NCBI GenBank assembly: GCA_947561395.2
Contig: OX387194.1
Coordinates: 20,694,048 to 20,758,047, forward strand
Reading direction: 5' to 3'
Length of the DNA stretch: 64,000 nt
From: Buxus sempervirens
Lineage: Eukaryota > Streptophyta > Magnoliopsida > Buxales > Buxaceae
The translations under genes and the position numbers were made by a program. The stretch's first letter is position 1, and every line of letters starts with the position of its first letter. The notes under the pieces were generated by a model. It made no database searches and was not told where the DNA came from. It saw only the letters and a list, made by a program, of their open reading frames with translations. Shown here one piece after another: positions 17,401 through 60,966 of this stretch.

Positions 17401-18148
17401 TATAAGCACCTCATTTTTGCGCTCCCAGAAAAGCCGGAAATGCAAACCCTGGACAGGAAGTCAAACCCTAAGGGGTGAAAGTTTGACTTTTGATCAAGTG
17501 AAAATTGGCCACCTCACTTTATCTCAATGGATGGAGAATCCCAACACGAGTCCAACACAACTAAGTTTGCTGGAATCGGAGTCCGAATGAAGGTTCTGCA
17601 GGCCGATCAAACTTGAGGGCAGCTAAAAGTTGACTTTCTGCTAAAACCCGATCCAGATGCTTACCTCTATGTCATTGGATAGAGAATCTCGACACGGTTC
17701 CAACGCAACTGAGTTTGCAAGAATCGGAGTCCGGATGAAAGTTTTGCGAGCCGGTCAAACTTGAGGGGAGCCGAAAGTTGACCTTATGCTAAACCCCAAT
17801 CCAGATGCTTACCCCTATGTCGTTGGATAGAGGGCTCCGATACGATTCTAACACAACTGAGTTTGCCCAGATCGGAGTCCGGATGGAGAAAATATGAGCC
17901 GATGAAGTTTCGGAGCAGCAAAACCGGCAAACTGCACACGTGGCAAAAAGCTGCACAAGTGGCAAGTTGCACAGGAAAATATCTCAGGGATCAAATCCGT
18001 GAATATTCAAACGTACGAAATATCCAAAGGACTAAATCTGTAAAAATCCAAGAATATCGGATTAAATCGAAAATATACAGGGACTAAATTCGAAAAAACA
18101 GATTTCCCGACCATTTAGCTGCCGCATTAATTATTTTTCCATCATTAT

Positions 18149-18202
18149 GCCGCTCGCGCGAGCTGGGTGAGCGCAAAACGCGCTCGGTGCCAGCTAGGCG
18201 CC
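18149..18202. repeat. Hairpin array, 5' module of LTR A
   Basis: A cluster of self-complementary words built on CGCTCGCG/GAGCGC/AGCT: CGCTCGCGCGAG, then GAGCGC and GCGCTC around an AAAAC loop, then GGTGCCAGCTAGGCGCC. The same arm words recur in the 3' module at 19227-19410. Confidence 0.6.
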
Positions 18203-18230
18203 AACCCAGCGAACCCTCTTTCCTTCTTTC

Positions 18231-18238
18231 TATAAAAG
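18231..18238 (+). promoter_or_regulatory. TATA box of LTR A
   Basis: TATAAAAG followed by a pyrimidine-rich leader. Equivalent boxes occur in LTRs C, D and E+. Confidence 0.5.
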
Positions 18239-19226
18239 CCGCACCATACTTCGTGCAAAAGGTTGGGAAAATTTTCAGTTGGCTCTCCTTTGGTTGGAGG
18301 GATTTTTCGTTGGCTCCAGTTGCTGTGCTCAAGCTTCTTCCCCATCCGAACCTTATTTGTCTCAGTCGCTTTGGCCTCCCCAAGCCCCCCACCTTGATCT
18401 GATACTCCCCTTTTCTTGCTTCTTCTTCATCCCCACACAAACAAGCGAAGGCTTGCTGCTGCCGTTGGTGCAAGAGGAAGAGAGCCCCAGCACTGGCGTC
18501 ACCTCGAGGAAGAGCCTCCACCTTACACCAAAGTTTAAGAACCCTCAAGTATTGTTTCTCACCGACTTTCGTTTCACATATATAAAAATGGGAGCTTTCT
18601 AAAGAGCTCTTAAGTTTATCTTCTCCCCTAGCCGGATCCGACCTGGTGATCATAAGCATGCATCTTTTTCACTTGCCGGTTAAGGTGGGGGTCTCTAAAG
18701 GTAAGAGAGACCCCACGCTTAGTTCCCTCTTGCTGTTATTGTCTTCCAAGTTTGCTGCCTGGGGATTCTCGGTCATCAAGTAAAGGGAGTATGTTCCCTC
18801 ACAATGAGCCTATCCAATGTACCCCGTATAAACCCCCCTTCTCTTTCCCTTCTCTGAATCTTCTTGAGTTGAAACATGGATCTTAGGTTCTGATGTTACT
18901 GTGATTCGTAGGTGATACATGCTAGCTAAGGATCCCACCTGTCATGTTCTTGTACATATAGGGTTTGCTATTCCCACCTTTGCATGCATGTGTTCTTGCT
19001 GTTGGCCTATCTTGTATGGTTTTTCTTTGATTTCTTGAGGGCTAGAAGCATACGCACACACCCCATGGTCTGAAATAATCTTATCTGAGTTGTGCTATTT
19101 TAATTTCAAAGTATGTTTAAAGGCCTTCTGGAGTCTGGTAGAAGCACTGGGAGGTGTCACAGAGACTGGAAATCAAGCCAGTCTCTGAGAAAAAGAAAAA
19201 ACAGAGAATCGGGTTTCGACAGGGGT

Positions 19227-19410
19227 GTTCGCCGAGCTAGCGCTGAGCTCGCTCCTAGCTCGCACGAGGCTCGCGCTCAGCGCTTTTCGCTCGCGCCGGG
19301 AGCCTTTTTGCGCCCGCCTTGCTCGCGCTGAGCGTGCGCAGGCGTCCCTTTTTTGCTGATTTCCGGTTCCACCCAGCTCGCGTTGACCTCGCGCCTAGCG
19401 CCTGAGGTCA
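19227..19410. repeat. Hairpin array, 3' module of LTR A
   Basis: GC-rich run of GAGCTCGC, GCTCGCGC, GAGCGC and CAGCGC words with many fold-back options, including TGACCTC pairing with GAGGTCA across GCGCCTAGCGCC near 19383-19410. It shares its vocabulary with the 5' module of the same LTR. Confidence 0.6.
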
Positions 19411-20255
19411 GCTCACCCTCTTAAAAATGCCGAATCACTTATATTTTTGGAAACCCAAAAATGCCCTTTACCGTCCAATACGGCCCACCCGAACTTGTTG
19501 GTGAATTGATGTATGAAATTTGTGGTTTGACCGAGACCAAGGGCTTATCGGGCTCACCAACTGAACCAAGGAAGGGTGCAAATCCTAACTTTCCGTAACT
19601 TGGGCTTTCAAGCCCTAATCAGGACTACGGGCCCCAAGCCCAGTGTCCAACCCATTTTCTGGAAACTTAAAAAGATAAATCCGATCAATTACTTGGCTAC
19701 CATGTGGGCCCACCTAAGGGGCCCACGAACCAATCCGGCCCACCTTTACATGAAAACCACTTAAATCTAATTTGAAACCAAAAGTAAAATCAATTGAACT
19801 AACCAAAGCCCAAAGGGCCTCTTAGGCCAGACTGAGGTTCACAAGGGTACATGGGCTTGACTAAGCCCACCAAGGACACAGTGGGCCTTCCAACGGGGCC
19901 CACCCAACTAGACTCAAATTACCTAATTAATCAAGATAAAAGCAATCAAAGGGACCCACACCACTCAGGTGGTCCCACCAGACTTAATCAGTTTGCATGC
20001 CGACTTAGGAATCGGGTGAAAAAATAAGTGAGTTGACTCAAACCGGGATAAACCTAGGGGACCCGTCACCCGACGGGGTGGACCGGGGTGTCTACGGACT
20101 TCCCCGAACCACAACCGAGACCCTACTTAGAATCTCAAGCCGTAGACCAAAGCCTTAATAGACGAGATTAGGCACCTAGGTGTCCGCTTGCACCCCATCA
20201 GGCGGTGGCAACTCCGAATTTTCCCGTGCGGTGTTTCCGACGCGTGCACAATTTC

Positions 20256-23421: not shown

Positions 23422-23425
23422 GAGA

Positions 23426-24933: not shown

Positions 24934-25677
24934 ACGTTGAATTTTGGTGGTTGGCTGGCTGCTCGCTGCTGTAAGCACCTCATTTTTGCGCTCCCAGAAA
25001 AACCAGAAATGCAAACCCTGGACAGAAAGTCAAACCCTAAGGGGTGAAAAGTTGCCTTTTTGATCAAGTGAAATTTGTCCACCTTGCTCATTGGATAGAG
25101 AATCTCGACATGGTTCCAACGCAACCGAGTTTGCAGGAATCGGGGTCCGGATGAAGGTTCTGCGGGCGGTCAAACTTGAGCAGAGCCAAAAGTTGACTTT
25201 TTGCTAAAATCTGATCCAGATGCCTACCCCTGTGTCATTTGATAGAGGGCTCCAATACGATTCTAACGCAACTGAGTTTGCCCAGATCGGAGTCCAGATG
25301 AAGGATCTATGAGCCGGTCAAACTTGATGGGGAGCAGAAATTGACTTTCTGCTAAACCCCAGAACAGCTGCTCAAACTTGTCCCAGTGGATAGGTCATCC
25401 TGACACGATTACAACGCAACTGAGTTTGCTCGAATCGGAGTCCCGGATAATAAGTTATGGGCAAAACAAGAAACCCTAAAAACTGCCCACGTGGCAAAAA
25501 AGCAGAGAAAACAACAGAAAAAGGTGTCTGGGGGCAAAACCGTAAAATATCAGGACAGTCAAAAATATCTGATGGCATGTCTGTAATTACCTGGGGATTA
25601 ATCTGTGAATATCGAGTTGATGTGAAAATAGCTCAGGGACTAATCTGCAATTATCAAGAAAATCCCCCCCCCCCCCA

Positions 25678-25793
25678 CATGCTTAATTCCCCACCACATC
25701 TTTCTCTCCCTCTCTCTCCTCCATAACTCATCCTCCACATGCTTAATTCCCCACCACATCTTCTTTCCCTCTCTCTCTCCTTCATAAATGCAT
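25678..25793. repeat. 60-bp direct duplication plus (TC)n microsatellites in LTR B
   Basis: CATGCTTAATTCCCCACCAC occurs at 25678 and again 60 bases later, each followed by CATCTT and a CTCTCTCC run. A C10-type tract precedes it (about 25665-25676) and (TC)13 lies at 25871-25896. Confidence 0.8.
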
Positions 25794-25870
25794 GTCCCCC
25801 ATGTACATCACCTCATCATGCAACTCTCTCTCTCCCCCCATGAGCATGCATCATGCACCACCATCATGAG

Positions 25871-25901
<31 letters not shown>

Positions 25902-27580
25902 TCATGTGGGACCCACCTCCAAGCACATTTATTCATCCCTAAGCAATCCCATGCATGCATCTCTCTCTCTCGCTCTCTCTCCCCCATGGGCATCCTCCAT
26001 GTCCCATCTCTCTCCCATGCACCCATTCATCATCCACTCATAACAAAAACCCCAAGCCCCATACGTATGGGAGGGGGTTAGCTCATTTTTACCTCTCCAT
26101 TCTTCCATCTCTTCCCTCTCTCCCAAGCTCATCCTACAACCCTCCCATTAGAACCTCTCTTCCCTTCACCTCTCTTTGCCCCTACATCTCCCAAATACCC
26201 TCTCAAGACTAGTCTACCTTCCTTTTTTTTCTCTTCTTCTTCATTCTCACCCAAGCAAGAGGAGGAAGAGCTGCTGTTGGTGACAAAAGGAGGAACTCCA
26301 GCACTTATTCTTGCTTCAAGAAGGCTCAACACACCTCCAAGAAGAAAAGAAATCCCAAGGTAATGTTCCCTAGTACCATTTATTTCACATATATAAGAAT
26401 GGAGGTGTTCAAAGGGGTTTAAAGAGGGCTTCATCTCTTCTTGTTCAAATCTGTTTTCATGTTTAGTTTTTACACATTTTTTCCTCATTTTCGTGATGTG
26501 AAAGTCTCCAAAGGTAAGAGGTTGTGCGTATGGTTCTAAAAGGGGAGATGAGTGACCTTCCCACATCCATCTTTTTTTGGGTCTTTGAAGTTATAGTTTG
26601 GTATGTTTTTCTTTCTTTCTTGATCTTAATGACGGAGCATGTTCCCCACTTTTAGCCCATCTAATGTACCCCGTACATAAGCCCCACTATCCTTTCCCCT
26701 ACTCTTTTTTTATATGGTTCTCATTTCCTTTCTTTTCTTTCTTATATGTGTGTTTTATGATGTTCGGTTCTCCTTTCGGCATGTTTTACTGATTGTGAAA
26801 TGTACATGTGTGTGCGTGTCCTCCTTTTCCTTTAGCATACCACTGTTTTGGGTTGACTGGCATATTCCCACACTCCCTTTAAGGTATAGTGTATAGCTCA
26901 TGTAAAGCCTTGCATATGGATCATAGGTGTTCACTCATGCACAGTTATGCTCACCCATTGTCGTGTACCCCGCAAGACCTTTCCCATATGATCCCTTACC
27001 CCACTTTTCCCATCATTTTCAACCCTTTAGCATGGTTAAATCCCCCCACATTGGTTGCTGTTCCCCATACCAGCAGCATGTTCCTCTCATGTATGCTTGC
27101 ATGATAATCTCATTTTCTTGCTTACCTTGAATGAAAGCCTACACTTACCATCACTAGGTGCATGTTAGGTCTCCTCCCACTTATTTTATCATGTCTCTAT
27201 TGCATGGATATGAGCTGGTATGTTTCTAGTTTAGAGGCATGATGAATGTGAATATGTGTGTTCAGGTTTTAGATTAAAGCTTGCTTTAAGCCCTTAATAG
27301 GTTGGATTTCTCATTGATTGTTGACTTGCTGTTTGTGGATCCACAGAGACCAAAACAGGGACAACTTGGTCCCTGTTTTACTATCATTCATAGCTCAAAA
27401 GGGAGAGGGCAACCACCCATGCCCTCTCCCCTTTTTCCTTGTTACAAAATCCCAAAAAGAGACCCGGATGGGGAGTTCGCCATTCTCTAAACCCGTGTGG
27501 GCTCACATTGGGGCCCACACAAGCTTAATACCTCCCTGGGAAGCCCAAGAACTTAGCCCACCCAAAAAAGAGCATTTTTA

Positions 27581-27728
27581 GGCTGATCCGACAACTCAGG
27601 TAGGATCAGCCACCTTTTGTTTGTAGCCAACCTAACTGGTTGGCTACATGAATTTTTCTATGTAGCCGACCTCCTAGGTGGGCTACAAATATACTTATGT
27701 GTAGCCGACAATTCAGGTCGGCTGCACT
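27581..27728. repeat. Hairpin array of LTR B (arm word TAGCCGACC)
   Basis: Four fold-backs in 150 bases: GGCTGATCC/GGATCAGCC (27581-27611), GTAGCCAACC/GGTTGGCTAC (27623-27632 with 27638-27647, 10 bp perfect), GTAGCCGACCT/AGGTGGGCTAC (27662-27686, one mismatch) and GTAGCCGAC/GTCGGCTGC (about 27701-27724). Confidence 0.85.
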
Positions 27729-30663
27729 GTCATAGACTCAGTTTTGTGTCTTTTATGATTCTTCAGCATTCTTCATGTCCGTTTAATTAAACCAGGCAAG
27801 CCAATAGGGTTTCCGGGCCACCCGGAAACCCAAGATGGGACTTGGACCAACCCGGTCCAACTAGACAACCTTGTGGGCCTTCCAACGGGGCCCACCAAAC
27901 TTGACAAACATCACAGGGTACAAGCATGTAACTTAAGTAACTTCGATAAATTAACTAACCAAACTGAGTGGGCCAAACCCAATGCGGCCCACCCAGACAA
28001 GCCTCATTTGTAGCATGATATGATAATTAGCATGGTTTGGCCGAGACCACAGGCAAGGGCCTATCAGGCCCACCAAGCCCACTAACCAAGCAAGCAAGGG
28101 TTCAAACCCTAACTTCAAAGAACTTGGGCTTCCAAGCCCAAATCTGGACTACGGGCCCCAAGCCCAATGTCTAACTCATTTTGGCAAAACTTAAGCAAGA
28201 TAACTTGAAAATATTTGGCAACCTTCATGGGGGCCCACCCAGGGGCCCGCAAACCAATGCCGACCCACTTTTTGCACGAAAGACATTTAAATCTCTAAAT
28301 TGAACCTTAAGATAAAATCAATTCATTTGAACCAAGCCCAAAGGGCCTCCTAGGCTAGACAGAGGCCCACTAAGGACATGTGGGCTTGACAAAGCCCACC
28401 AAGGACACCGTGGGCCTTCCAACGGGGCCCGCCCACTCAAATTTAGATCACTTAAAATTAAGCAAGATAAAAGCAATTAAAGGGACCCACACCACTCAGG
28501 TGGTCCCACCAGACTTAACCAAACTGCATGTCGGAATAGGAATCGGGTGAGAAATCATCGAGTTGACTCAAACCAGGAGGAACCCACGGGACCCGTCATC
28601 CAACGGGGTGGTCTAGGGTGTCTACAGACTTCCCCAGACTGCAACCGAGAACTTGCTTAGAATCTCAAGCCGCAGACCAAGCCCAATAGACCAACTTAGG
28701 CACCCAGGTGTCCGCTTGCACCCCATCAGGCGGTGGCGACTCCAAATTACCGTTTTACCCTCTCGGAGGCACGCACGAAAATCCGTGTGCCCCGCCGTGC
28801 GATTTCCCATGCGCACAGCTGCCACTCGAGCGCTAATGCGAGTGACCCACCTGTGTTTCAAAAAAAATTCAAAACCTGAGAGTTAGTTTCCCAAGTAAGC
28901 CGAGCACCCGAAGCACCGCTCGAACGCCCTTTCGAGTGACCTGAACAGTTTTTCCAAAATTTTGGATTTTAGCCCAAATTAAACTACGGATTGTTTTTAT
29001 TGGAATTCAAGCAATGTACAAGTAGGATTTAGGTATCTAGGAAGTGTACCAACTAGAATTATTTCAAAATTCCAAATAACAAAGATTTTGGGTACGTTTT
29101 CCTAAAATAGGTTTTATAGAAAGTTTACGTTCCAGATTTTTATAGAAGTGGGATAATTTGATTCTATTACTTAGAACACCTTCCAAATGAGCCTTGGAAG
29201 TAGAAAACAAGAACCAAAACCAAGTTGCACCTGTTTCCAAGAAATTAGGGCCTAGGTTGCCCAAATAGTACATGATGAATGAATGATTTATTTTAATAAG
29301 CATGTCTTGTTTCTATTGCTTGTTCTAAAGCATGCAATACATGACTTGAAGGGCTTTGGCCCAATATTTGGCATATGTATGGAGGGCAGTGACCCTTTAT
29401 TGAGATGATTTATATGGAGGGCAGTGGCCCAGATTCCATGAGATATGAAAGAGGGCTTGGCCCAAGATTGACTCAAGTAAGGCCATGGGCTACGCTTGAG
29501 AATTTTTCATGCATGAGTGCATACTACACTTGATGTGGAATTGATGAAATGAATACTCGCATAATGAACCCTTAAGCTATGGATCCATAAACTTAAATAG
29601 GATTGTTTGTATATAAATGCCATGACCAAGTTACTGTTGTTATTGTTATTGCATATTGTTTATATCATCCTGACACCAGTAACATCGGTGGCCAATGCCC
29701 ATTTGCTACGGGGAATCGGCAATGGATGCCTGTACGTCAAGGGTAATCGGCGTATGGATGCCCACGTCAAGGGTAATTGGCGTGGATGCCTAGCCACCAT
29801 GTGGAATTGGTGAAGCTAGATGAGGTCATGTGCATTGTATACTAAACAACCTAATTAAAAAGTGATAAGAATATGTGAACGGTGTTTATTAAATGGATTA
29901 TATTGTACACCTAAGCACAGATTGCACCTATTGTATGGCACTGAATTGTTGATGATTTCTTATTCTTGCAACTACCCACATGTCATGGTTTCATCGATTG
30001 ATATTAGCATCAAATATGTTTTCATCGAGCATGCATGAGTTGCTTACTGAGACATTTGTCTCACAGTTGCTTTATCATCTTATTTTCAGAGCCGTCGACG
30101 TCCGATGTGAAGGACTGGACCGGGGACCGAGGAAAGTGTGCGCATGTCATGGGAATGCAACGCGAGGGCGCACGCGATGAAATGCGAGGGAACGAGGGGT
30201 GTAGGAGTCTCCACTGCCTGATGGGGTGCAAGCAGACACCTGGATGCCCTAAGGATGTTTACTTTGGTCTGCGGCTTGAGATTCCTGTTAAGATCTCGGT
30301 TACGGTCCGAGAAAGTCCATAGACACCTTGGCCCGCCCCGTCAGTTGACGAGTCCCTTGGGTTTCCCTGTTTCGAGTCAGTCTTGGTTTAACTCACCCTT
30401 ATGTCTTAAACCAGCATGCTCACTTATTAAGTCTGAATGGGACCTTCAAAAGGTGTGGGTCCCTTTTATTTCAATTGATTTTATCTTTCTTTGTCCAAGT
30501 GATGTTGGTCTGATGTGGACCCCGTTGGAAGGTCCATGGAATGCCAAGTAGGGCTTAGGTCAAGCCCAATTCCCATTCGGGGTTATGTTGGATAACCCCA
30601 TTCATTGGATTTGGTTATGTGGTTTGGGGATTAATTAAGTACACAAAATTGGTTGGCTTACTG

Positions 30664-30755
30664 GGCCTAACCGTAGAACAGGTGTGGTTTGGCCTCAACC
30701 GCACATGTAGTGCGATTGGAGCCAAACTGCTCTGTGTATGCGGTTTTGGCACAGA
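30664..30755. repeat. Hairpin array, 3' module of LTR C
   Basis: CAACCGCAC/GTGCGATTG around ATGTA (about 30695-30718, one mismatch) and GCCAAAC/GTTTTGGC around an 11-base loop (30721-30750). It uses the same AACCG vocabulary as the 5' module at 32561. Confidence 0.65.
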
Positions 30756-32540
30756 AAGTCTAAAAAAGTGATTTTCCATGAGGGCTTTGGGCTCTTGGGT
30801 CTTTTGTAATGTTCCAGCAACTGTGTGGGCCCATGGTGGTTCAATGGAGGGAGAAGATCCCTTTTTTTGGCCTCTTTTTGGATTTTCTCAATCAAAGAAA
30901 GAGGGGGGAAGGCATGGGGTTGCCTTTCCCCGCTTTGGATTATGCACAACACTGGACAGGGACCATGGAGTCCCTGTCTTGGTTTCTCAACACACCAAAC
31001 AGCAAACAAGCTTCACCTTGGTAAAAGGAAATATAATCAAATAAGAACCTACAGCATGCTCGCTCAAATAAACTCAACATACATATTTCCACACACCATG
31101 CAAGGGAGCAGCACATGTTTAGGCTTGAATTCATCCGAGAGGTGCTGGTAACACATATGTGAGTGACCTAGCATGCCACTAGGGTGGGGGTGCATGTATT
31201 GCAATCAAAGTAGTCAAGCAATAGCACATCTCATGTAAACACCAACAACAAGTAAATAAAAACCTGCTGTGGAAATGGGGGGACAGCAACTGTTGGAAAA
31301 AGGTTTAAGCATGTTAATGGAGGGGGAAATGCAAGGGAATTAGGTGAGGGGGCTGCATGCATGCCCAATGCCTAATTGATTAGACTGGGGAGTGTAAACG
31401 GGTGAGGGACTTTGCTGGAAACAGCAGTTGTCCTGGGGGTTATAAACATGCTGGGATGGCAATTGAAAGGGGGTAATGAAACATGTTTATATACACAAAA
31501 CAGCAAGTTACAGGGGGAAAGGGAGCATGCATGCACATTTTAGTGTGTCAGGTTAAGGGGAGTGCACATGCACTTTAGGAGACCTGCTGAAGGGTGCAGT
31601 ACAGCAACCAACAGTAGGAGTTTGCTGCTGTCTCCAGCAGCAAACCTGTGCAATCAAGTGCATGGGGATTGTGGAGGGAAATGCTGCATTCGTACATGGT
31701 GTTTGGGGCTAAGATTTGGTGTGCCAACAGGTGAACAACCTGCTGGAGCAGCTGCTGTCCAAGGGATTTTATGCATGCTAAAATCAACAAATGTAAAAGG
31801 GGGAGGGGATCATGCTCACACGCAGAAATACATGCTCCCTAATCACTAATCATTCCAGCACATATGAATATGCACACTTCGTCCTTAATCATGCTCGAAA
31901 CAACCACCTATTTGACAGGAAAACAAACCAACGAGAAGGGTATAAAAAGAGGGGTTTATAGGGAGTACATCGGATGAAGATTGAGAAGGAACATGCTCCT
32001 TCTTAAAATGACACTCATAAGCCCAAAACAGTAGCTCAAGTGACTCAAGTGCTTGTGAACATGGCTCTCACTATCCCATGGAGCTGCACGTGAGGTCTCC
32101 CTTACCTTTGGAGACCTCCATGCTTATGGAAATGGGATAATAATACATACAAACCACTAAAAAAAGCATATCTGGACAGAAGAGAAGATTAGCTTTCTAA
32201 ACATAGCAAAATGCATCCATTTTCATATATGAGGGAAAGAACATGTTAAGGAGCAATACCTAGGGGTCTTGAGACCTTGTTGAGAGGTGTAGACTCCTTG
32301 GAAGCTGAACCAAGTGCTGGAAGCCTCTTCTCCAGCAGCAACAGCAGCTCAAACCTCCTTCTTCAAGTTTGGTAGTGGTGGAGAAGAGAGGTGGAGGGCT
32401 TAAGAGGCCTTCGGAGTGGGTTTTGGAGGTGTTGGAGGCAAAAGAGATGGGAGAAAAGGGGGTTTGGAGGTTCAGTGGGTAGGGGAGAAGGAGAAGAAGC
32501 AGTGGAAGTCAGCCATCCTTAGTCCCATGCTCGAATTTTG

Positions 32541-32550
32541 CTTTTATAGC
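32541..32550 (-). promoter_or_regulatory. TATA box of LTR C
   Basis: The reverse complement reads GCTATAAAAG, in the same place relative to the LTR start and hairpin module as the boxes of LTRs A and E+. Confidence 0.5.
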
Positions 32551-32557
32551 ACACTAG

Positions 32558-32715
32558 GACAAAACCGTATACTTAGTACGGTTTTGCCAAAATTGAACAG
32601 TAACCGCACATACCGCACGATTTGGTAGAAAACTGCAGGGTATGTGTGGTAGAAAACGCTAATTGGCTCGCGTAGACGGTGGCCGAAAAAATCAACCGTA
32701 CACCATATGCGGTTG
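32558..32715. repeat. Hairpin array, 5' module of LTR C (arm word AACCGTA)
   Basis: AAAACCGTA (32561-32569) pairs perfectly with TACGGTTTT (32577-32585) across a 7-base loop. ACCGCACATACC pairs with GGTATGTGTGGT (near 32592-32650). AACCGTA pairs with TGCGGTT near 32695-32715. Confidence 0.82.
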
Positions 32716-33177
32716 CGATTCTCCCACTTTTTTGGTTGAGTTGACGGCTGAGGTGACTTAGCTGCCCACTCGGACGAATCAGATTTCCCCATTTTTTAAT
32801 ATTTCCTATTGATCTTAATTAGTTTAATTAAGATATTTTAACTTTGATTGATTTGCCCTTGGGACTGTTTTACTCATATCTTCCCCATTCGGGCTCCGAT
32901 TCCTACAAACTTAATTGCGTTGGAACCGTGCCGGGATGCTCTACCCATTGGGATAGGGTATAGCAATCAATTTGGACTCAAAGGGAAAGTCATCCTTTTG
33001 CTCTTAAGGGTTTAGACTTGTCTTTTAGGGTTTTGCTTTCGGGCTTTTTAGAGGGGTGCAAAAATGAGGTGCTTACTGTAGACACCCCAAATTGTACTAC
33101 AGAATGAGAAAGTAATAAAAACATGTAATTAAAGTTTAAAACAGGCCAAAAATGCATGCATATGAATAATTTAAGCC

Positions 33178-33288
33178 TGGACCGTATTGTATCTACGGGC
33201 TAAGCGCGCCCGAAATGTATATACGGGCACGCAGCGCCCGTAATACAAATACGGGCACCTTTGGACCGTAAAGCATTTACGGGCACTT
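33178..33288. repeat. Hairpin array of LTR D (arm word CCCGTA)
   Basis: Four fold-backs of about 20 bases each: ACCGTA/TACGGG, GCCCG/CGGGC, GCCCGTA/TACGGGC (33236-33242 with 33250-33256, perfect, 7-base loop) and ACCGTA/TTACGGG. Confidence 0.85.
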
Positions 33289-33485
33289 TAGACTCGTGCG
33301 AGTTCTGTTCTTCTCTCGATTTCTGAGCTTTATCTTTAGTCCAATATATCCCTTTAAATGAGTGAATTACATATTTTATTCATGCGAAATATCTTTGTGG
33401 ATAAAGGATGGGCATGATCTTGTGTTTAACTCAAACTGAACTCTATCTTGCCAAACCTTGGACCAACCATACCCCTGTGTTTGCC

Positions 33486-40620: not shown

Positions 40621-40632
40621 ATTATTTTTGGG

Positions 40633-43885: not shown

Positions 43886-44199
43886 GAATCATTTGCATGT
43901 AGGGTTTTGCTTAAAAAATTCGTAGGGTTTGGTTTATGTAACTATTCGGTTTAGATTTCCATTGATTTTCCATGGATTTCCATCTCTATTGTTCACATTT
44001 CGAATTAAGGTTTGAGTTTGGTATTTGAATGATGATTTATGTGATAGATGTTGTGTTCATGAGGATTTGGGGATGAATCCTTGTTGTGGAAGATGTTTTA
44101 AGTGTGTTGGGATGATGTATGATCATCAAATTTGGTGTTGGAAAGGTTAGAGATGATTTGTAGGAGTTCTTATGTTTAAATTAGCCAAAATTTCGTAAG

Positions 44200-44445
44200 A
44201 GCCCGAGCTGGTGATTAATCCTGGAGTTTGGCGATTAATCCTGAGCCAAAACACCCAAAAAGCAGTCACTGTAAATAGTAATCGCGAATCAGGATTAACC
44301 TGGGTGATTAATCCAGAGCCTTAGCGCGCGAACGCTCAAAGGGAGCACGCGCACGTCAGGAGGGTTTAAACCTTAGCGCGCGAGCGTCAACCCTCAACGC
44401 CCGAACGCTGAGGCTAATCACCCCTGGGCGATTAATCCATGACCT
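44200..44445. repeat. Hairpin-like module of LTR N (arm word GATTAATCC)
   Basis: GATTAATCC recurs at least four times. GGATTAA pairs with TTAATCC across CCTGGGTGA near 44297-44320. GCGCGCGAACGCT and GCGCGAGCGTC words and an AGGGTTTAAACCT palindrome follow. Confidence 0.6.
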
Positions 44446-46861
44446 AATCGTGGACCCTGTGTTTGACATTTCTTCATCCTTTTCTCCCAAACCCTTTTCC
44501 AAACAGCATAAGACCCTTTTCCAAACAGCATAAGTAAATGTCATGTGTATTTATTGCTCAATTTACTTAAGTCTTTACATGTAAATAAGGTTTTACCCCC
44601 CATTTGGAACCAATAAAAATACTGCCAAGGCCCAATTCCCAACCAATAAAAAGTCAAATTTTCAGTTTGTGCCTAAATTTCCAGTTTTCCTGATTTTCAA
44701 AAATGGCCACTTTTTGAGTTTGATATCCAAATGAGTGATTCGGAAGCCTAGAAAATTCTAAATGATTTGTATACCCTCCAATAAACTACAATCAGAATTT
44801 GAGCCCCAAACCCCTTGTAGATTTGTTTAGAAAAATTCGACACCGAAAAGTCAATGTTTTATCCAGACAGAATATTTTTAAGGTCCAAAACTTTTTGTCT
44901 CGGAATCTGTTGATTTTTGGTATGGTGACTTTATTGGGGATCCTAAGACTATCCCACTTCTCAAATGCGTAATTCGTGGACCTTAAGGGGTATGATTTTA
45001 CTGTGAATTAGCTTTGGCTGTGAAGTGCTTGTTGGTTATTTCTTACCCATTGGGAATATTAATTTGATTTGGTAAAGCTGTGATGAGCTTTTTCTATGTG
45101 ATTTAAGTGACGGTGTAGATCTCACTTGGTCATGGTTGATTGGCAGTGACGGTGTAGATCTCACTTGGCCTTGGTTAAATGGTAGTGGATGGGGAATTCC
45201 ATTTGGTTTGTGAATTTAGTACTATATCTTGGTTTGTGGGATGTGATATTGGTTCTAGTAACTACTGACAAAAGTTTGTCCTACATCATGAGCTCTACAG
45301 GTTTGTCTTATATTATCAGTCCTACCAGGTTTGTTAGCTAATTTTTATGGGTTATATTATTTAGATGCTTGACTTGAGAATATGAATTGCATAAACTGCT
45401 TTTATTCATTTAATGTTATATGAATCGCATAAACTGCTTCTACTCATGATGTTGTATAAATTGCCTAAACTGTTCTAATCATGATATCATGTGAATTGCA
45501 TCAACTGCTTCCATTCATGCATGTTTGCTACTTGCTGGGACTTTAAGTCTCACGCATTTTGTTTTACCGGATTTATTTTCAGATCCGTTTGGTGAGCCAC
45601 GTACTGGGGCAGCTATCGAGGGTGAGCTTGAGCGCAGGCCCGAGGACTTTTACTATCCGTAGTAGGGGTTCTCTTTACGTTATTGTATTTAGTTCCTAGA
45701 AACTATCAATGGGAATGTAGTTATTCTTTTTGGGATTTGTAAACTTGGGAGCTATCTTTAGATTATCATTTTTGTGTATAAATGCTCTTGTGAGAGATAG
45801 TGATGGAGAGATCTTAGTTGCCTTTTTGTATACCTAAATGTTGTATTTTGGAGTTATTACATAGATGCCTTTTATAAAGTGGAAATAACCTAAGCATGCT
45901 CCTAATGCATAGATATGTAAATTTATACATGAGACATATGAAGAATGATGGGACTGATTCTTTATAGGCAAAACAGTGACCAATAGGAGGTAAAAACATG
46001 GTAAGAATATACAAAATAGTAACAAGAAAATCATAGTTTCTTTCATATGCATGCTTTTAGTACTAATGAATAAATTTCATGTACACATGCTTGAAATAGT
46101 AACTAAACCATGTACAAGTAAAATAAACAAAGAAAATACAACTTAACATACATCCTACAGCATGATTATATTCGTACTAATCATCCATCCAACCTGAAAG
46201 AGAGCACCTAAAGAAGGGGTAAAGGGGGTTACACATAGGGTACATTAGATTAAGGTAAAAGGGAACATGCTCCCCTTTTAATTGAAAAGAAAATAGCAAT
46301 AAGGAAAGGAAGAAAACAGCAGCAAAATAAATGGTTTTAGAACCTTTAAAAATCAAATAAGAAGACCTCTCTTCCTCTCTTTTAGTTACCCATGCATTCC
46401 CCTTACCATAGGAAGTTGTTTACACTTAAAAATGAAGATTATGAGAAGACAAAGTAAGTAGGCAAGTTATTATAATAGAAAACAGTAGATGCATAGTATA
46501 AAGAAGCATGAAAGTATTCATCCTTTATTCATTTTTGATTATGTTAATTAAAAGACACAAAGGGACTCACCTTGGGGGTTTAAACCCTTGTTGGAGGTGT
46601 GCTTGACCACTTTGAAGCACAACAGTAGCCGGACAGCACTTCATTTTACAAACTCTCCCAAGTTTTCTTCTTGTGTTTGAAGTGGAAGAGAAAGGGTTAG
46701 GGAGTGATTGGGGAAGAGTTTGGATGTGGGTTAGGTACTTGGGGAAGAGAGGAAAGGAGCAAGAGAAGGGGGTCGTGCAAGGTAGGGGGAGTGAAGGAAG
46801 AAGGGGCTAGCCAACCATAAGAATGGGGGCTGGGCCCCCTTATTATAATAAAAAAAAAAAA

Positions 46862-46980
46862 TTGTGAACCGAAATAAGATTTCGGTCACACTAATTAATA
46901 CTTAATACTGTGACCGAAATTTTATTTCATGTTTGGTGTTTTTCACTTGTAACCGAAATTTAATTTTGGTTACAAGTGAA
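46862..46980. repeat. Hairpin array of LTR E- (arm word ACCGAAAT)
   Basis: TTCACTTGTAACC pairs perfectly (13 bp) with GGTTACAAGTGAA (46942-46980). TGTGAACCGAAAT pairs with ATTTCGGTCACA (about 46863-46890). A third, degraded GTGACCGAAAT copy lies between. Confidence 0.85.
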
Positions 46981-48374
46981 AGCCTTATTGAGTGACATGT
47001 GTCCCTCTCCATTCTTATCCATCCAACACATGAGCTTATCCGCATTCTCCACATGCAAAATTGATTTTCAATTTTAATTTTTATTTATTTTAATTATTAG
47101 ATTTTTATGATTTATTATTATTCTATTCTTTAGATTTGACATGCGTTTTCAATTTTCTTTTTATTTTTTATTTAATTTAATTAATAGATTTTTATGATAT
47201 AATATTATTTTATTGTTAGATTTTTATTTAATGTCCTTTCTTTAATCTTTGCCACATAGGCAGTTTTGTCGAGACTTTGACTGCCTATAACTCTTTCATC
47301 TGGTATCTGATTTTAGCAAACTTAGTGGCGTTGGAATCAGGTTGAGATCTTTTATCCACTGAGCTAGAGTTTAGCAACAAATTCGGGTTTTTAGCAGAAG
47401 TGCGAAACTGCTACCTCGGAGCCAGTTTTGCTCATATCTCTTTATCCGGGATTCCGATTCTGGAAAACTCAGTTGCATCGGAATCATGTCGGCAATTTGT
47501 TTCCTTTGGGATAGAAATAGCAGACAATCTGGGTTTGAGCAGAAAGTCAATTTCTGCTCCCCCGGGACTTGCTCTGCCCATAAATCCTTCATCTGGACTT
47601 CGATTCTAGCAAACTCAGTTGCTTTGGAATTGTGTCGGAAGTCTCTATCTGTTGGGATAAAATTGAGTAGTTGATTCAGATTTTAGTAGAAAGGCAAAAC
47701 TGCTCCCTGGGAGCCGGTTCTGCTCATAACTTTCTATCCAAGACTCTAATTCCAGCAAACTCAGTTGCGTTGGAATTGTGTCGAGATGCTCTTTCTACTG
47801 GGGTAAATTTGGATAGCTGATCTGGGGTTTAGCAGAAAGTCGATTTCTGCTCCCCTCAGGTTTGATCGGCCCATAACTTCTTCGTTCAGACTCCGATTTG
47901 AGCAAAATCAATTGCGTTAGAATTGTATCGGAATCCTTTATCCATTGATAAGAAGTATGATGGCTGATTTGCACCAGATAAAAAGTCAAATTTTTAACCC
48001 CTCAGGGTTTGACTTTTTCAATTAGGGTTTTCATTTTCGGCACTTCCGGTGCGTAAAAATGAGGTGCTTACACTAGAATTGTGATGTAAAACCCTGGATT
48101 TTCCTAATATAACATAAATAAATAAATAATTAATGAATAAATTAGAAGAGACTTGGAAGTATAAATAAATTTAGAAAAAGGAAAATAGGAACTAAGTATA
48201 GTGATTTAAATTTATATTATAAGTGAGAATTTGTAGAATTAATATTTAGGATTTAAATTTCAAATTATGAATAGAAATAATAAAAAGAATAGAATTTGGA
48301 GAATTTTGGAGAAATTCAATGATTAAGTGTGGAAATTAAAGAAAGGGCATTTTGGTCATTTCTAATTAGTCAAA

Positions 48375-51047: not shown

Positions 51048-53470
51048 TGTAAGACCTCGAATTTTTGCTAACTCTAATTATGAGGTAATTAATAAATGTA
51101 ATTAAATATTATTGGTGAAATTTTCCAGATAATTGAGGAACAAGGACAGATTCGGAATTTCTGGAAGTAAAGGAGCAAAATTATATCTTAAGGTTTGTGA
51201 TGGTTATAACTTAAAGTGAATGGATAATTATATTATGAAAATTAATTTAAATTGGCTTGGATGTTAGATTATTATTGCCGGAGTGGCAAAGTATATAATC
51301 AAGGGACAAGAAGTGTTGGTGTAGAGTGGCTATCATGGGTGAGCACTCGGCGAAGCAAGGAGTGGTTTGAGCGCCAATTGCGTCTATAAATAGACTGAAT
51401 ATTTCAAGCGGTGTTTCGCTTGTTTGATCGGAGAAAAGTTGAAGAGCTGAGCAGTGGAGTCGACTGAATTTCAGAAGGCTAGTTGGAGAGAGAGTGTTGG
51501 AGATCATCGGAGGAGAGTTACTTGTTGATTTGAAATCTCAGCGACTGCAAATTTGTGAGGTGCAATCAGGTCTAGTTGCTGATATCAAGAGCAGATCAAT
51601 TTCAGGTGAGTTAGTAGCAAGTTAGGTTAATTTGGATTAGTAAGGAGAGATCAAGTTCAGATCTAACCAGATCTGGAATTTCGTGTGGAACAGAAACCAT
51701 CGGTAGTAGAAGTGTTCACTCAGAGGTGTTCGAGTAAAGGATTGGAAGCTAGAAGATTTAATTAGCAAACCAGGTAAGTAGCACTGGATTTATTCGTAGT
51801 TTTGCAACCGGTTGCATGAATTAAATTGGATCTATATGCTGCAAGTTAAGATTATCAATGGAAATCTGTTTTTAAGAGCAAATGGTCGATTCGGAGCATG
51901 ACCTTAGTTAGATTAATTTCAAATTGGTGTTATAGGATTGTTAGAAGTGTTAGGAGTTTGGATTTGCCATCGTAGAAGCTTCAATTTAGGTCAGTCATGT
52001 CGGAATCGAATTAACAGAGGCTAGAAATACCTGTCGGAGAAATAAGGGGGTATGCGCTGAGTGCCGCCCAGTGATTTTTTGCTAAGCGGCACTCAGCGGA
52101 TGTTAAAATCTAGGATGCGCTGACCTGGCGCCTATTTCCGCCTACTGTCTTGAGGTCAGCGCACCCACCAAATTACCAGGTGAAATGCGGCTGATCATTT
52201 TGAGTTGATTTTCTCCACTCTATCACTTCAAACACTTCTCTAGAAGCTGGATTAAGGTGTTGGAAGTATTATAAAGTGGTCAGAACCTACGGAGATTATT
52301 ATGCCAATTTTTGGTAGGATTTATGAGTTCTAAAAGTCAAGTTTGAAGGGCTGGTGGGTTGTTAAATTGCTGTTTGGGTACCATGAGGTAGTGGTTTTGT
52401 TTTATCTATGTTTTACTATTGTTTCTAGCTTGTGAAATTGTATAACTCGAGTTTTATCGAATTACAAGGTGCTGAGCAGAATTTATGAAAAAGGTATTTG
52501 TGTGAGTAAAGGATTATACAATTGGTTTGGATTTGTGTTTTGGGTTAGATTTCCAATTGAAGTTCCATGATGTTACTGTTCTGGTCCTGAGTGACCCGTT
52601 ATGAGTTTGGTTTGTGTTATTGATGGTAATACCAGAGGTTGGTATATTTTGCTACAGAGGTTGATTGGGATGTTGAGTTATTTGTTTTGTTCCAACTTGT
52701 CCCAGATCCTAGACTAAGCTTAGTAATGTAATGAGTTGGCTTTATTGTGGTAATTGCATGGCCATGAGTATTGCCATGACCAGGGTAGAGCAACCCGTGA
52801 TCCTTGGTAGGCCGGGTTGTCAATGCCGAAACCTGGAGTAGACCGGCATTAGATGACAAAGTCCCTGGGTAGGCAGTCATTTCAGAGTTCCACGTCTACG
52901 TTGGCCGGACTATGTTCCAGGAGGCTTGGATGTTGCTCCGGCATGTGAATTACACAAAATAAGTGAACTTCATGGCATTGGCCACTTGTGTATGGTTTAT
53001 TATTGCTGTTTGGATATTGTATTTCCCGATTATTGAGAACTTGGGATTTTGGAATTTATGACAACTCTTATTGTTTATCGTGATCGAATATTATTCGAGA
53101 CACATTTTAGAATTGATATAAATTGTTTTATTCATGCATGTGCTACTTGCTGGGATATTCGTATCTCATTACTTTTGTTTTGTTTTGTTTTACAGATACT
53201 CTCGGTGAGGACAAGTTTGTTGGGGTAGAGCCAGCTAATTACTATAGGGGAGAGGATTACTTCTTTCCTTACAGATTGTAGGTTCTATTTCTCGTTTTGA
53301 ACTGTGAGAGTTGTAATGGAATAATCCTAGTTGATATTCAGATTTGTTTAGAACTATTAACCTTCATGTTGATTAGATTAGACGATTATAAAATATGGAG
53401 AGAGAGATCGAGAGAAAAAAAAATATACTTTATGAAGGAGTGCTGAAGAATTCAGACTAGTAGTAATCAA
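51048..53470 (+). mobile_element. LTR G (Tekay type), right end uncertain
   Basis: Starts TGTAAGACCTCGAATTTTT. It contains a donor-like GGTAAGTAGC (51774), two strong hairpins (52055-52163), and the conserved box CATGCATGTGCTACTTGCTGGG with a TTTTACAG acceptor-like site (53134-53196). The usual TGTTACA end is absent; sequence of host LTR F is recognisable again by about 53480, so the 3' end is truncated. Confidence 0.65.
52055..52163. repeat. Hairpin pair of LTR G (arm word GCGCTGA)
   Basis: CGCTGAGTGCCGC (52055-52067) pairs perfectly with GCGGCACTCAGCG (52086-52098). TGCGCTGACCT (52116-52126) pairs perfectly with AGGTCAGCGCA (52153-52163). These 13-bp and 11-bp stems are the longest perfect ones in the Tekay-type modules. 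Confidence 0.92.
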
Positions 53471-55387: not shown

Positions 55388-55497
55388 TCATAGCTGAAAT
55401 TGAATTTCGGCTATGCACTTTTTATTGTATGACCGAAATTGAATTTTGGTCATGAACAGATATGGGTTTGACCGATTTGTCTTTTCAGTCAAACCCA
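55388..55497. repeat. Hairpin array, 3' module of E+
   Basis: CATAGC...GCTATG around GAAATT/AATTTC (55389-55415), ATGACCGAAATT/AATTTTGGTCAT (about 55433-55457) and TTTGACCGA/TCAGTCAAA (about 55468-55495). The core matches the 5' module of the same LTR. Confidence 0.85.
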
Positions 55498-58472: not shown

Positions 58473-58505
58473 ATTCAGAAATTAGAGGACATGCTCAGGT
58501 GTTGT
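58473..58505 (+). pseudogene. 33-base integrase sliver of Tekay-1 between two solo LTRs
   Basis: The sliver consists of the right ATTCA duplication of J, a stretch reading KLEDMLR in the integrase frame, and the left GTTGT duplication of K. It continues the frame that stops at 38645 and resumes at 60967, which shows J and K landed separately 28 bases apart in the target. Confidence 0.9.
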
Positions 58506-59393
58506 TGTGACGCTCCGGAACCGGACATGTTCATTAAAGCTATATGCCAGCTCCTAGACATCAAGTAAGGTCCCAGTAGCACTTCCTAAACCCGATTGAC
58601 CAGTTAACATCTGAATGCACTAAAATTTAAAACAAAATAAAATAAATAAAGCGTGGGTGTAAGTGTTGACAAAATCTAAACCTATATATACATATCCAAA
58701 TAAAAGTCTACAGATACAGTTTCACTAAGTTTCACACACACTCTCTCTATAAACAATATTTACATGATCCAAAAAGATAGAAAAACTATAAAAGAAAAAT
58801 CTTTAGTCCTAGCCAGGAAAATAATAATCCTCTAGACGATAGACATCTGAATCATTATCTCTGTCTACCCCAGCACGTACTCGCTCTGCAGAATTTTCTG
58901 AAAACAAAACCGATAAAACAAAACGCGTGAGAATTTCTTCCCCTTAAGTAGCAAATGCATGCTAAATACAATTTATGCAGATTATAATATAATATAGCAG
59001 TTAAATTCTTATTCAAACAATCTCCGAAAGTTCAGTAATTTCAGTAGTATTCAAGAGTCATAGTATAACGAGAAGATAAAATCAAAATCAATCCAAACCA
59101 CGGTATTAGTAAACCACAATCAATTATAAAGATGGGTCAATATAGGACTCGTGGATTAGAATACCTTGGGTGATTTAACACTAGTGTCCAATTCGCCACC
59201 TCACAGCTTACAAGGAAAGACCTCACTAGGGTCGCCCTTCCAAAGCAGAGTACTCACTCATGAGTTGGAAAGTACAATCCAATCAACTAGTTAGTAGGAG
59301 TTAGTGATTATAGCATATTTGAATATAATAAACCATCAAGTTGACCTCACAGGTTGCTATAGCTCACCCGCACAGAGGGTGGCCTTAATTTTG

Positions 59394-59880
59394 TGGTGGA
59401 TGCAAGTTCACTACCCCCGACTCCTCACGAACTAGGGTGAACGGCCGTCCACTACCCACAAATTAGTGAAACGCATGTTGGACAAGAGTATTAATTCCAC
59501 ACAAGTCAAAAGACACACCATCTGGCTTAGACATGGATCCAACTCTACAACCAAGCCCACTAGACCATAAAAACAAACCACTGTTTCCATATACTAAATT
59601 ATAAACAATCTCACAATTCTGAGCTTCTGGGTGAATTTAGGTTTACTACCCACAATGCCTTAAAGCATGTGGTGAACTTGAGTTCACTACCTCTGGAATC
59701 CATATTTGTGGTGGATGCAGGTTCACTACCCCCAGTTAGGGTGAACAACAGTCCACCACCCCCAACTAAGGTGAACATCAATCCACTACCCACAAATATC
59801 CACGTCTATGGTGGATGCAAGTTCACTACCCCCAGCTCTCATAGCAAGGGTGAACGACAATCCACTACCCACAGAATCAA
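59394..59880. repeat. Minisatellite of LTR K
   Basis: GTGGATGCAAGTTCACTACC and the paired phrase GGTGAACNNCNNTCCACTACC recur three to five times (for example 59396, 59717, 59812) with spacers of variable length. Confidence 0.8.
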
Positions 59881-60204
59881 CATGCCATATATTATACTTG
59901 TACAATTCATAGATAAAACCATTTCCAAATCATCTCAATGTAAGTGTTATTAGATCTAATTATTTACTAAAGATCACTTCTATATAGAAAATGTATAATT
60001 TATGTCATAATTTAGGGTTTTCACTGATTATTAATTTCTAACTCATTTTGTGACTAAACATTAATTATTTACCAAACTACGAACTCACTTTTGATTACAA
60101 TATACATTAAGCACTCAAACTAAATTTTATTATTCAATTGACTAAACCTTAACAATTTATTATGATGTGAACTAATTTATAATTAAAATATCATTCTTTT
60201 ATAT

Positions 60205-60350
60205 AGGGCACTTGGCTTGGTCGCTTGGGCGACTAAGCTAGGTGCCCCTTTTAATGGATTTAACATGGTTGCTTGGCCCATCGCCTGGGTGATTGTGTTG
60301 AGCGACCCTTATAGTTTTTGGTCGCTTGGCTCTGATGCTAAGCGACCAGA
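60205..60350. repeat. Hairpin module of LTR K (arm word GGTCGCTT)
   Basis: GGTCGCTT (60320-60327) pairs perfectly with AAGCGACC (60340-60347). GGTCGCTTGGGCGACTAAGC lies near 60218, with further GCTTGG/GCGACC words between. Confidence 0.8.
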
Positions 60351-60966
60351 AAACCCCAAATTTACGGAGCCTCTGTTCTCCTGATTTTAAGCTACAAAAC
60401 CAATTTTTTTCACTCTAAATCACTTAACAAACATTAACAAGCATGCAAGAATCAAAGCCTAACAACCTACCACTCGATTTATGCAACATAATTCGTTCGA
60501 TCCAAATCAAAACGTTTGAACTACCGAAATCTCGTTTGAAACAAAACGAACAGTATTTTTCTGTTGAAACCAAAACTTCTACACAATCTAAGAGTAAAAG
60601 ATGCTACTTACAACGGGTTATAGATCTGGCCTCTTCTTTTTCCCCTTCTTCCTTTGCTCTCCTTCCCTCTCTTTCTGTTCTTTCTTTCACCGACTTTCGA
60701 CAAGCAACCAGAAAGTTCTGGGTTTGTCGGATAAACCTATAACTAACCTAAACCAACCAAACCGGTTTTACTTAAAATGAACCGACCCAACCAAACCAAA
60801 CCCAAATCAATTAAACCGGTTCACTTAAAGTAAACCAACCTGAACCAAACCAAACCACCAAACCAAAGGGTTTCTTTTAAGTTTGATTTAATTAATCAAA
60901 TTAAATAATTTAACCTTTATTTACTTTTAATTAAAATTACTTAAAATTTCAGGATCTTACAGTTGT

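What the first reader, a model, noticed from the sequence alone, without database searches (positions are those of the whole stretch)
17401..60961. Position-conserved, sequence-variable hairpin arrays in nearly every long LTR
Seen directly: LTRs A, B, C, D, E+, E-, G, K, L, M, F, J and N each hold one or two compact clusters of short fold-backs. Within one LTR the hairpins share an arm word; between LTRs the word differs completely. Examples with exact pairing: AAAACCGTA/TACGGTTTT (32561-32585, C), GTAGCCAACC/GGTTGGCTAC (27623-27647, B), GCCCGTA/TACGGGC (33236-33256, D), a 13-bp stem at 46942-46980 (E-), CGCTGAGTGCCGC/GCGGCACTCAGCG (52055-52098, G), GGTCGCTT/AAGCGACC (60320-60347, K). In A, C and E+ the 5' and 3' modules use the same vocabulary, so the arms evolve together at two sites over 1 kb apart. 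Conserved architecture with replaced sequence suggests selection for structure plus a changing recognition word (RNA dimerisation, packaging, sub-family specificity or silencing evasion), or a copying mechanism that makes matched inverted repeats. The function is inference; I know of no description.
Basis: partly seen in the sequence, partly recalled or inferred. Interest (0 to 1): 0.88.

Follow-up and report, generated by a model that had tools for sequence, protein, structure and literature searches.

The report
Fixed-geometry palindromes in retrotransposon promoters
Long repeats of several probable plant retrotransposon families carry arrays of short palindromes whose letters change from lineage to lineage while their length and their distance to the promoter stay fixed, which looks like DNA docking sites whose lock is re-cut again and again.

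Summary
The fold-backs are real: 25 with arms of at least 9 bp in 17401-60961, against 2.35 in shuffles. In lineages B, C, D, E+ and E- the main unit is one object: a 17-bp dyad, CCG-N11-CGG, whose neighbouring letters change in matched pairs between lineages (9 in the region, shuffles 0.18, maximum 3). Lineage A keeps the length with other letters. Genome-wide, ACCG-N11-CGGT upstream of a TATA box occurs 488 times; the 16 neighbouring gap lengths together give 90. In 45 of 69 strings the dyad ends exactly 15 bp before TATA. The commonest unit spacings are 28 and 38-39 bp. G-U and A-C mispairs are equal (75, 72), so nothing points to RNA hairpins. In A, C and E+ the promoter module shares words with a second module over 1 kb away; B does not. 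Best reading: DNA sites for a dimeric factor in the LTR promoter, with a half-site that turns over. Sirevirus LTRs have a similar published design; this is a new variant in probable Ogre/Tat (Ty3/gypsy) elements. The factor is unknown.

The parts
17401..20250 (+). LTR A (solo LTR, target duplication ATTTC), probable Ogre/Tat-like family
   Evidence: flanks ATTTC at 17396-17400 and 20251-20255; blocks shared with B
18169..18202 (+). A 5' module: GAGCGC-N5-GCGCTC (18169-18185) and GGTGCC-N5-GGCGCC (18186-18202), 17 bp each, 28 bp upstream of TATAAAAG at 18231-18238
19219..19420 (+). A 3' module, GAGC/GCTCGCG words shared with the 5' module
24970..28817 (+). LTR B (solo LTR, target duplication GCTGC)
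27580..27730 (+). B 3' module: four dyads GATCCGAC/GTAGCC(G/A)AC-N7-, centres 39 bp apart
30137..33076 (-). LTR C, approximate ends
   Evidence: TGTGCGCA at 30137-30144 read
32541..32712 (-). C 5' module: dyads 32565-32581 and 32696-32712 and a decayed one between; TATAAAAG at 32541-32548, 15 bp from the 19-mer 32564-32582
30690..30770 (-). C 3' module, AACCGCA words, decayed dyads 28 bp apart
33178..33290 (+). D module: four CCG-N11-CGG dyads at exactly 28-bp period (33182, 33210, 33238, 33266)
39885..41732 (+). LTR E+, 5' part (continues at about 55105; inferred)
40390..40640 (+). E+ 5' module: ACCGAAATT-type dyads, several decayed, last one 40600-40616; TATATAAG at 40633-40640, 15 bp from the 19-mer 40599-40617
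55391..55497 (+). E+ 3' module: three dyads, each decayed on one side, the first two of the 5' module's word; centres 39 bp apart
41733..48072 (-). LTR E-, inserted into E+ (target duplication CTAGA), itself carrying a nested insertion
46868..46981 (-). E- 5' module: dyad 46869-46885 and the 14-bp stem 46941-46981 (same geometry, one CGG decayed)
60190..60348 (-). K module of an unrelated LTR family: GGTCGC/GGGCGC words next to a TATA box; its relatives carry 42-bp palindromes there (the window copy did not pass the detection threshold)
52055..52160 (+). G module, another LTR family, CGCTGAGTGCCGC stem and GCGCTGACC words; geometry not studied

Best explanation
The arrays are clustered DNA-binding sites of the LTR promoter. 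Each unit is a dyad read by a dimer: two half-sites around CCG-NN facing each other across an unread centre of 7 bp, so that the two CCG triplets are 11 bp apart. [quoted passage not shown] a second cluster with the same word lies further into the LTR in lineages A, C and E+. The factor's geometry is conserved; the letters next to the CCG drift by lineage, both half-sites changing together because one dimer reads both, and both modules changing together because one factor reads both. Shown: geometry, TATA distance, preferred spacings, covariation, lack of RNA asymmetry. Inferred: that a protein binds, that it activates transcription, and that word turnover marks escape from silencing or from cross-talk between lineages. 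Whether the factor is element-encoded (for example the plant mobile domain or another extra ORF known from the Ogre/Tat clade) or a host protein is open.
For: CCG-N11-CGG 9 times in the region against 0.18 in 200 shuffles, maximum 3. Gap 11 is the commonest gap in B3, C5, C3, F5, E5 and D5: 56, 35, 3, 20 (of 20), 1, 4 (of 4). Upstream of TATA, N11 gives 488 sites (reversed pattern 38); gaps 3-10 together 41 and gaps 12-19 together 49 (reversed patterns 195 and 223). Dyad-to-TATA distance exactly 15 bp in 45 of 69 and 14-17 in 62 of 69 distinct strings. Pair k=5 is Watson-Crick in 36 of 47 distinct 19-mers, 14.9 expected if the sides were independent, with four pair types; k=3 26 against 15.5. 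Pairs swapped on both sides at homologous sites: GC 11/CG 10 (one exception) in B3; GC 10/AT 5 (one) and GC 9/AT 5 (two) in F5. Unit spacing 39 in 49 of 53 (B3), 19 of 37 at 38-39 (F5), 28 in 3 of 3 (D); 28 (43), 38-39 (24), 23 (18) of 100 listed places. Shared 8-mers between the two modules: 38 on, 6 off the diagonal among A, C, E+. K family: another geometry, palindrome centre 21 bp before TATA in 6 of the 8 copies where both were found, 19 examined.
Against: No binding, expression or methylation data. Lineages are related, so part of the constancy may be common descent; many of the 69 strings share spacer letters. B has no such dyads upstream of TATA. Spacing is a preference, not a rule: C5 has 10 of 45 at 86-87, 8 at 76-77, 11 at 28-29, 9 at 39; F5 has 18 of 37 at other values, in part gaps left by decayed units; 23 is half a helical turn off 28 and 39. 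Pairs k=1, 2 and 4 show little or no covariation (18/12.8, 24/23.7, 40/38.4), and pairing fades at k=12-13 in C5 and F5 (0.39-0.56). Some outer flanks are self-complementary but differ between sites of one LTR, which a simple binding site does not need. The second module has no known promoter next to it. Lineage A lacks the CCG core. E+3 has no exact CCG-N11-CGG, and the generic dyad count is not above shuffles in E5 and J3 (1 against 0.42, 0 against 0.19) and only just in F5 (30 against 16.0, maximum 27). The pairing test has only four LTRs (1 of 24 permutations).
Confidence: 0.66

Rival explanations
1. RNA hairpins: the stems work in the transcript (dimerisation, packaging, 5'-3' pairing between the U5 and U3 copies).
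For: Both modules would be in the full-length RNA if the TATA box marks its start; 5-9 bp stems with a 7-base loop; arms covary. B3 and F5 lean to G-U (24/15, 29/21).
Against: Overall G-U 75 against A-C 72 (p 0.87), C5 the other way (17/31), shared events 12/9; K family 13/24, p 0.10; distance to TATA is a DNA feature. Most mispairs may be decay after insertion, so this test is not final.
Confidence: 0.08
2. Host-silencing template: the palindromes are kept because of promoter function but mainly matter as hairpin sources of small RNA, as proposed for maize Sireviruses; word turnover is escape from those small RNAs.
For: Published precedent in maize Sireviruses (passages of PMC10760457); CCG/CGG cores decay by C>T and G>A as methylated sites do. 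Compatible with the main reading.
Against: No small-RNA data here; does not explain N11 or the TATA distance by itself; Martin et al. report no obvious structure peak in maize Ty3 elements.
Confidence: 0.1
3. Inheritance without present function: one ancestral dyad array, copied by tandem duplication and kept in register because indels are rare, arms kept alike by template switching during reverse transcription.
For: Lineages are related; 28- and 39-bp periods could be duplication units; constancy weaker outside them.
Against: CCG stays while neighbours change in matched pairs; words are unrelated at about 80% flank identity between A and B; a different family (K) shows the same logic with another geometry; template switching does not link modules over 1 kb apart.
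Confidence: 0.14

Closest known systems
Sirevirus (Ty1/copia) LTR repeated motifs, RM boxes (PMC2829016)
   Same: Family-specific palindromic boxes, a CGG-CCG core in all but one, clustered in the LTR upstream of TATA, word differing between families
   Different: Those are about 10-20 bp with variable gap and mostly CGG..CCG order, at least 8 copies per element, in copia elements; here probable Ty3/gypsy, CCG..CGG with a fixed N11 gap, one to five detectable units per module, near-fixed distance to TATA, and a second module
Palindrome-rich cis-region of maize Sireviruses (Bousios et al. 2016; not held, seen only as cited in PMC10760457)
   Same: Palindromic clusters in the LTR cis-region, proposed regulatory role in tension with small RNAs
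   Different: RNA structure and small RNAs stressed there; no sign of RNA constraint here; Ty3 elements of maize were reported to lack an obvious peak
VANC target repeats of VANDAL transposons (PMC5735166, passages)
   Same: Arrays of a short word in non-coding DNA, word changes between related elements, read by an element-encoded protein
   Different: VANC motifs stand in the same orientation and are in DNA transposons; no such protein is identified here
Tandem repeats and antisense TRP28 ORF of Retand, plant mobile domain ORF of Ogre (PMC11963269 passages, PMC6317226 passages and section 13)
   Same: Probably the same clade; extra proteins with possible DNA-linked roles
   Different: Those repeats lie mostly between pol and the 3' LTR; LTR dyads were not in what I read

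Membership tests
Sirevirus RM boxes | Palindromic repeat unit, family-specific word | tested here: met
Sirevirus RM boxes | CGG-CCG core | tested here: inconclusive
   CCG..CGG order in B, C, D, E+, E-; absent in A
Sirevirus RM boxes | At least 8 copies per element, mostly in the upper half of the LTR | tested here: not met
   1-5 detected dyads per module and copy, and a second module downstream of TATA
[quoted passage not shown]
   not in B
Sirevirus RM boxes | Host element is a Ty1/copia Sirevirus | tested here: inconclusive
   LTR pair C9 encloses Retrotrans_gag (PF03732, E 3.5e-8; no other Pfam family at E 0.01), best named relatives are Fagus sylvatica 'Retrotransposon gag domain-containing' proteins, and the PBS-like TGGCGACTCCACTAGGG is not the usual Met one; that these point away from copia is recall. 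No RT found to classify
Ogre/Tat clade (Ty3/gypsy) | LTRs of several kb, element to about 24 kb | tested here: met
   LTR B 3.85 kb; same-strand LTR starts 12.7 and 17.4 kb apart, 96 and 93% alike over 1.1 and 1.9 kb, with like gag regions between them. Not diagnostic alone
Ogre/Tat clade (Ty3/gypsy) | PBS for a tRNA other than Met | tested here: inconclusive
   TGGCGACTCCACTAGGGACTT 3 nt after the LTR; tRNA not identified
Ogre/Tat clade (Ty3/gypsy) | RT phylogeny and second RNase H domain | tested here: inconclusive
   No RT-like ORF seen by eye in the 9.2 kb read of the C9 copy; three further ORFs have no significant Pfam match: non-autonomous, so neither could be tested
Ogre/Tat clade (Ty3/gypsy) | Plant mobile domain ORF (57% of Ogre) | tested here: inconclusive
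   PMD-like ORF (E 0.0014, below cut-off) beside one copy in antisense (L057); no ORF over 100 aa before gag in C9
RNA hairpin element | Excess of G-U over A-C mispairs on the transcript strand | tested here: not met
   75/72 and 12/9
VANC-type anti-silencing targets | Cognate element-encoded binding protein and demethylation | not testable with these tools
   no expression or methylation data

The most novel reading that the evidence does not exclude
A clade of giant, probably Ty3/gypsy retrotransposons runs a lineage-private transcription system: an element-encoded dimeric DNA-binding protein family with one invariant docking geometry (two CCG triplets 11 bp apart, 15 bp upstream of TATA) and a rapidly switching half-site letter code, so that lineages sharing one genome, including gag-only non-autonomous ones, are switched on and hidden from silencing separately.
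Probability: 0.22. Interest if true: 0.88.

Novelty: new variant of a known kind. Interest (0 to 1): 0.62.

Why it matters
It gives probable Ty3/gypsy elements a promoter code that, in the open-licence papers I could search, I found described only for Ty1/copia Sireviruses, and it turns a vague hairpin cluster into a rigid, countable motif. That makes a standing question testable: how do retrotransposon lineages sharing one nucleus keep separate control and dodge trans-acting silencing? The motif itself (CCG-N11-CGG plus lineage letters) is a probe for fishing out the factor.

Tried and rejected
RNA hairpin as the primary function: rejected on the mispair test and on the distance to TATA. Rfam: no family at gathering score in the window. 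VANC-like same-orientation repeats: the units are palindromic. Second promoter at the 3' module: I looked by eye for a TATA box about 15 bp from the B3 and E+3 dyads in the sequence and saw none; not tested statistically. An ORF over 100 aa before gag in the C9 element (Ogre extra ORF): none. A CCG core in lineage A: absent. Exact 5-mer half-site matrix: uninformative for C3 and E+3 (no perfect word dyads there); replaced by shared k-mers. Gag homologues: five proteins, two named ones from Fagus sylvatica, none of which settles the clade. Literature: ten searches, judged from listings plus passages or sections of the eight papers opened (PMC10760457, PMC2829016, PMC11963269, PMC5735166, PMC6317226, PMC7156037, PMC3601003, PMC10398659), showed no description of such dyads in Ogre/Tat LTRs; only open-licence PMC text is covered, and two searches found no paper holding all their terms.

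Rows dropped: in group C3 I used 3 of 10 fetched 3' loci plus the window (the other seven do not reach the module or hold other DNA); in A3 8 of 10 plus the window (L076, L084 miss it); in B3 all 30 loci plus L065 and L066, of which 26 gave sites. Mispair and spacing counts use only sites with at least 5 of 7 pairs. For K, 10 of 19 sequences gave sites (the window copy gave none); one of the 15 sites is an overlapping shift of another (L151). An earlier count said 24 of 30 for the B palindrome; the call shows 23.


Full report
WHAT IS IN THE WINDOW. The window lies at G000:C21:20694048-20758047 of a 676.5-Mb assembly; it looks like a plant genome (inference from its elements). Its right two thirds is a nest of LTRs. 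One family (start TGTAAGCACCTC, end TGCGCACA) is represented by A (17401-20250, duplication ATTTC), B (24970-28817, GCTGC), C (minus), E- (41733-48072 minus, CTAGA) and E+ (39885 on, interrupted, probably resuming about 55105). D (from 33077, TGTAGACACCCC) is a second family, K and G are others. Two places in the genome with same-strand LTRs 12.7 and 17.4 kb apart have a like gag region between them; the protein of one matches Retrotrans_gag (E 3.5e-8); its LTR is followed after 3 nt by TGGCGACTCCACTAGGGACTT. LTR and element size fit the Ogre/Tat clade as described in PMC6317226 (passages and section 13 read). Calling the gag Ogre/Tat-like is recall; a protein search gave five relatives, two named, both Fagus sylvatica gag proteins. 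By eye no RT-like ORF lies in the 9.2 kb read of that copy, and three more of its ORFs have no significant Pfam match, so it is non-autonomous and the clade is not proven.

CHECK OF THE OBSERVATION. The quoted stems exist and perfect fold-backs exceed local shuffles about ten-fold for arms of 9 or more (25 against 2.35). Not every module carries perfect stems (A5 and C3 have none of 7 bp), so 'nearly every LTR' holds only if imperfect dyads are allowed.

ONE GEOMETRY UNDER MANY WORDS. Listing every CCG...CGG in the window by gap shows one mode, at 11, with 9 well-flanked sites in the finding against 0.18 in shuffles. The first was searched genome-wide with a free loop of 1-12; the matches listed all have a loop of exactly 7 (70 sites, 3 for the reversed pattern, not all listed). 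In fetched copies the same gap dominates (B3 56, next gap 19; C5 35, next 9; F5 20 of 20; D 4 of 4). E+3 has no exact site, its dyads being decayed on one side. Lineage A has no CCG core; its 5' module keeps 17-bp dyads (GAGCGC-N5-GCGCTC, GGCGCC-N5-GGCGCC): 9 in 11 copies against 2.09 in shuffles, maximum 7.

POSITION. The 5' module stands upstream of a TATA box: C at 15 bp, E+ at 15 bp, A at 28 bp. Genome-wide, ACCG-N11-CGGT followed within 5-35 bp by TATAWAAG gives 488 sites and 38 for the reversed pattern; all gaps 3-10 together 41, all gaps 12-19 together 49, some of these being evident indels or second anchors of the same array, with 195 and 223 for their reversed patterns. Of 69 distinct strings copied from the listing, 45 have exactly 15 bp between dyad and TATA and 62 have 14-17. 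Words at this one site include CCGCA, CCGTA, CCGGA, CCGAA and CCGAT, usually with the matching partner arm. The strings are not independent: several share spacer letters.

SPACING OF UNITS. Consecutive detected centres: B3 39 bp in 49 of 53; F5 39 in 16 and 38 in 3 of 37, the rest scattered; E+3 39 in 2 of 2; C5 9 at 39, 11 at 28-29, 8 at 76-77, 10 at 86-87 of 45; C3 28-29 in 3 of 3; D 28 in 3 of 3; E5 84. A genome pattern for a dyad followed by a second ACCG gives 24,427 matches (reversed pattern 6,718); the 100 listed places, all from one end of contig C1 and often the same site on both strands, lie at 28 (43), 38-39 (24) and 23 (18).

COVARIATION, AND RNA OR DNA. Arms change in matched pairs at k=5 and k=3 (36 of 47 against 14.9; 26 against 15.5) but not at k=1, 2, 4; at homologous sites several pairs are swapped on both sides. 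If a transcript stem were selected, G-U should exceed A-C mispairs on the coding strand; they are 75 and 72 (p 0.87; B3 24/15, C5 17/31, F5 29/21), and 12 and 9 for mispairs shared by two or more copies. The K family gives 13 and 24 (p 0.10). The test is diluted by decay after insertion: CCG/CGG lose letters mainly by C>T and G>A. Together with the distance to TATA this points to DNA.

TWO MODULES, ONE WORD. For A, B, C and E+ in the window, distinct shared 8-mers between 5' and 3' module are 12, 2, 8 and 18 on the diagonal; off the diagonal among A, C, E+ the total is 6; the diagonal is the best of 24 pairings. B is the exception: its 5' part has no dyad array; 23 of 30 B-type loci have CCCATACGT there instead. 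A and B are about 80% identical in their conserved blocks with unrelated words, so words can change faster than flanks.

OTHER FAMILIES. Relatives of K carry 42-bp palindromes with nested half-sites: 10 of 19 sequences gave sites (the window copy did not), three of five intervals are 61 bp (the others 121 and a spurious 17), and the centre lies 21 bp before TATA in 6 of the 8 copies where both were found; three K-related copies have a GA-rich tract instead. So a palindromic array against the TATA box recurs in an unrelated LTR family of this genome.

HOW IT MOST LIKELY WORKS. A dimer reads two half-sites around CCG across an unread centre; arrays and a second module give cooperative binding at the LTR promoter. 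Turnover of the letters beside CCG changes lineage specificity. Shown: geometry, position, covariation, no RNA asymmetry. Inferred: protein, activation, reason for turnover. Candidate factors, from the literature only: the plant mobile domain ORF of Ogre and TRP28 of Retand (PMC6317226, PMC11963269); host proteins of the plant mobile domain family are tied to a promoter motif in Arabidopsis (PMC7156037, passages).

WHAT IS KNOWN. Sirevirus RM boxes are the nearest relative in design (PMC2829016, section 9 read): palindromic, CGG-CCG core, family-specific, upstream of TATA, and there called Sirevirus-specific. Martin et al. 2023 (passages) found structure peaks in maize Copia LTRs and no obvious one in Ty3. 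A survey of LTR models (PMC3601003, passages) has no occurrence of 'palindrom'. VANC targets (PMC5735166, passages) are the functional analogy. By membership these arrays fail the copy-number feature of Sirevirus RMs and the host clade is unproven; by working principle they probably resemble them.

Noticed in passing
60175-60350; loci L134-L151: Relatives of the K LTR carry 42-bp palindromes GGGCGC..GGTCGCC|TAGGCGACC..AGCGCCC abutting TATA; three related copies (L136-L138) have a GA-rich tract in place of the module.
   Followed up: partly
B-type loci L005-L034: CCCATACGT, in many copies as the palindrome CCCCATACGTATGGGG, near a TATA-like box in place of the upstream word array (23 of 30).
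   Followed up: partly
20752-24020: Chromovirus-like element (inferred): LTR ending GGGCGTTACA at 23422, PBS-like ATGGTATTAGAGC, gag-like ORF; its GAGCGC words at 21595-21800 resemble those of the unrelated lineage A.
   Followed up: no
G000 C9:4859300-4868500 (L127, L129, L133): Element with gag and a lysine-rich tandem repeat region but no RT-like ORF seen between its LTRs: a gag-only non-autonomous derivative.
   Followed up: partly
42578-43886: 1.3-kb array of degenerate 22-bp repeats (CCTAAGGTACCCC) inside a nested insertion.
   Followed up: no
CCG/CGG cores of dyads in B3, C5, F5: Core letters decay mainly C>T and G>A on both arms, as expected of methylated CG/CHG sites.
   Followed up: partly
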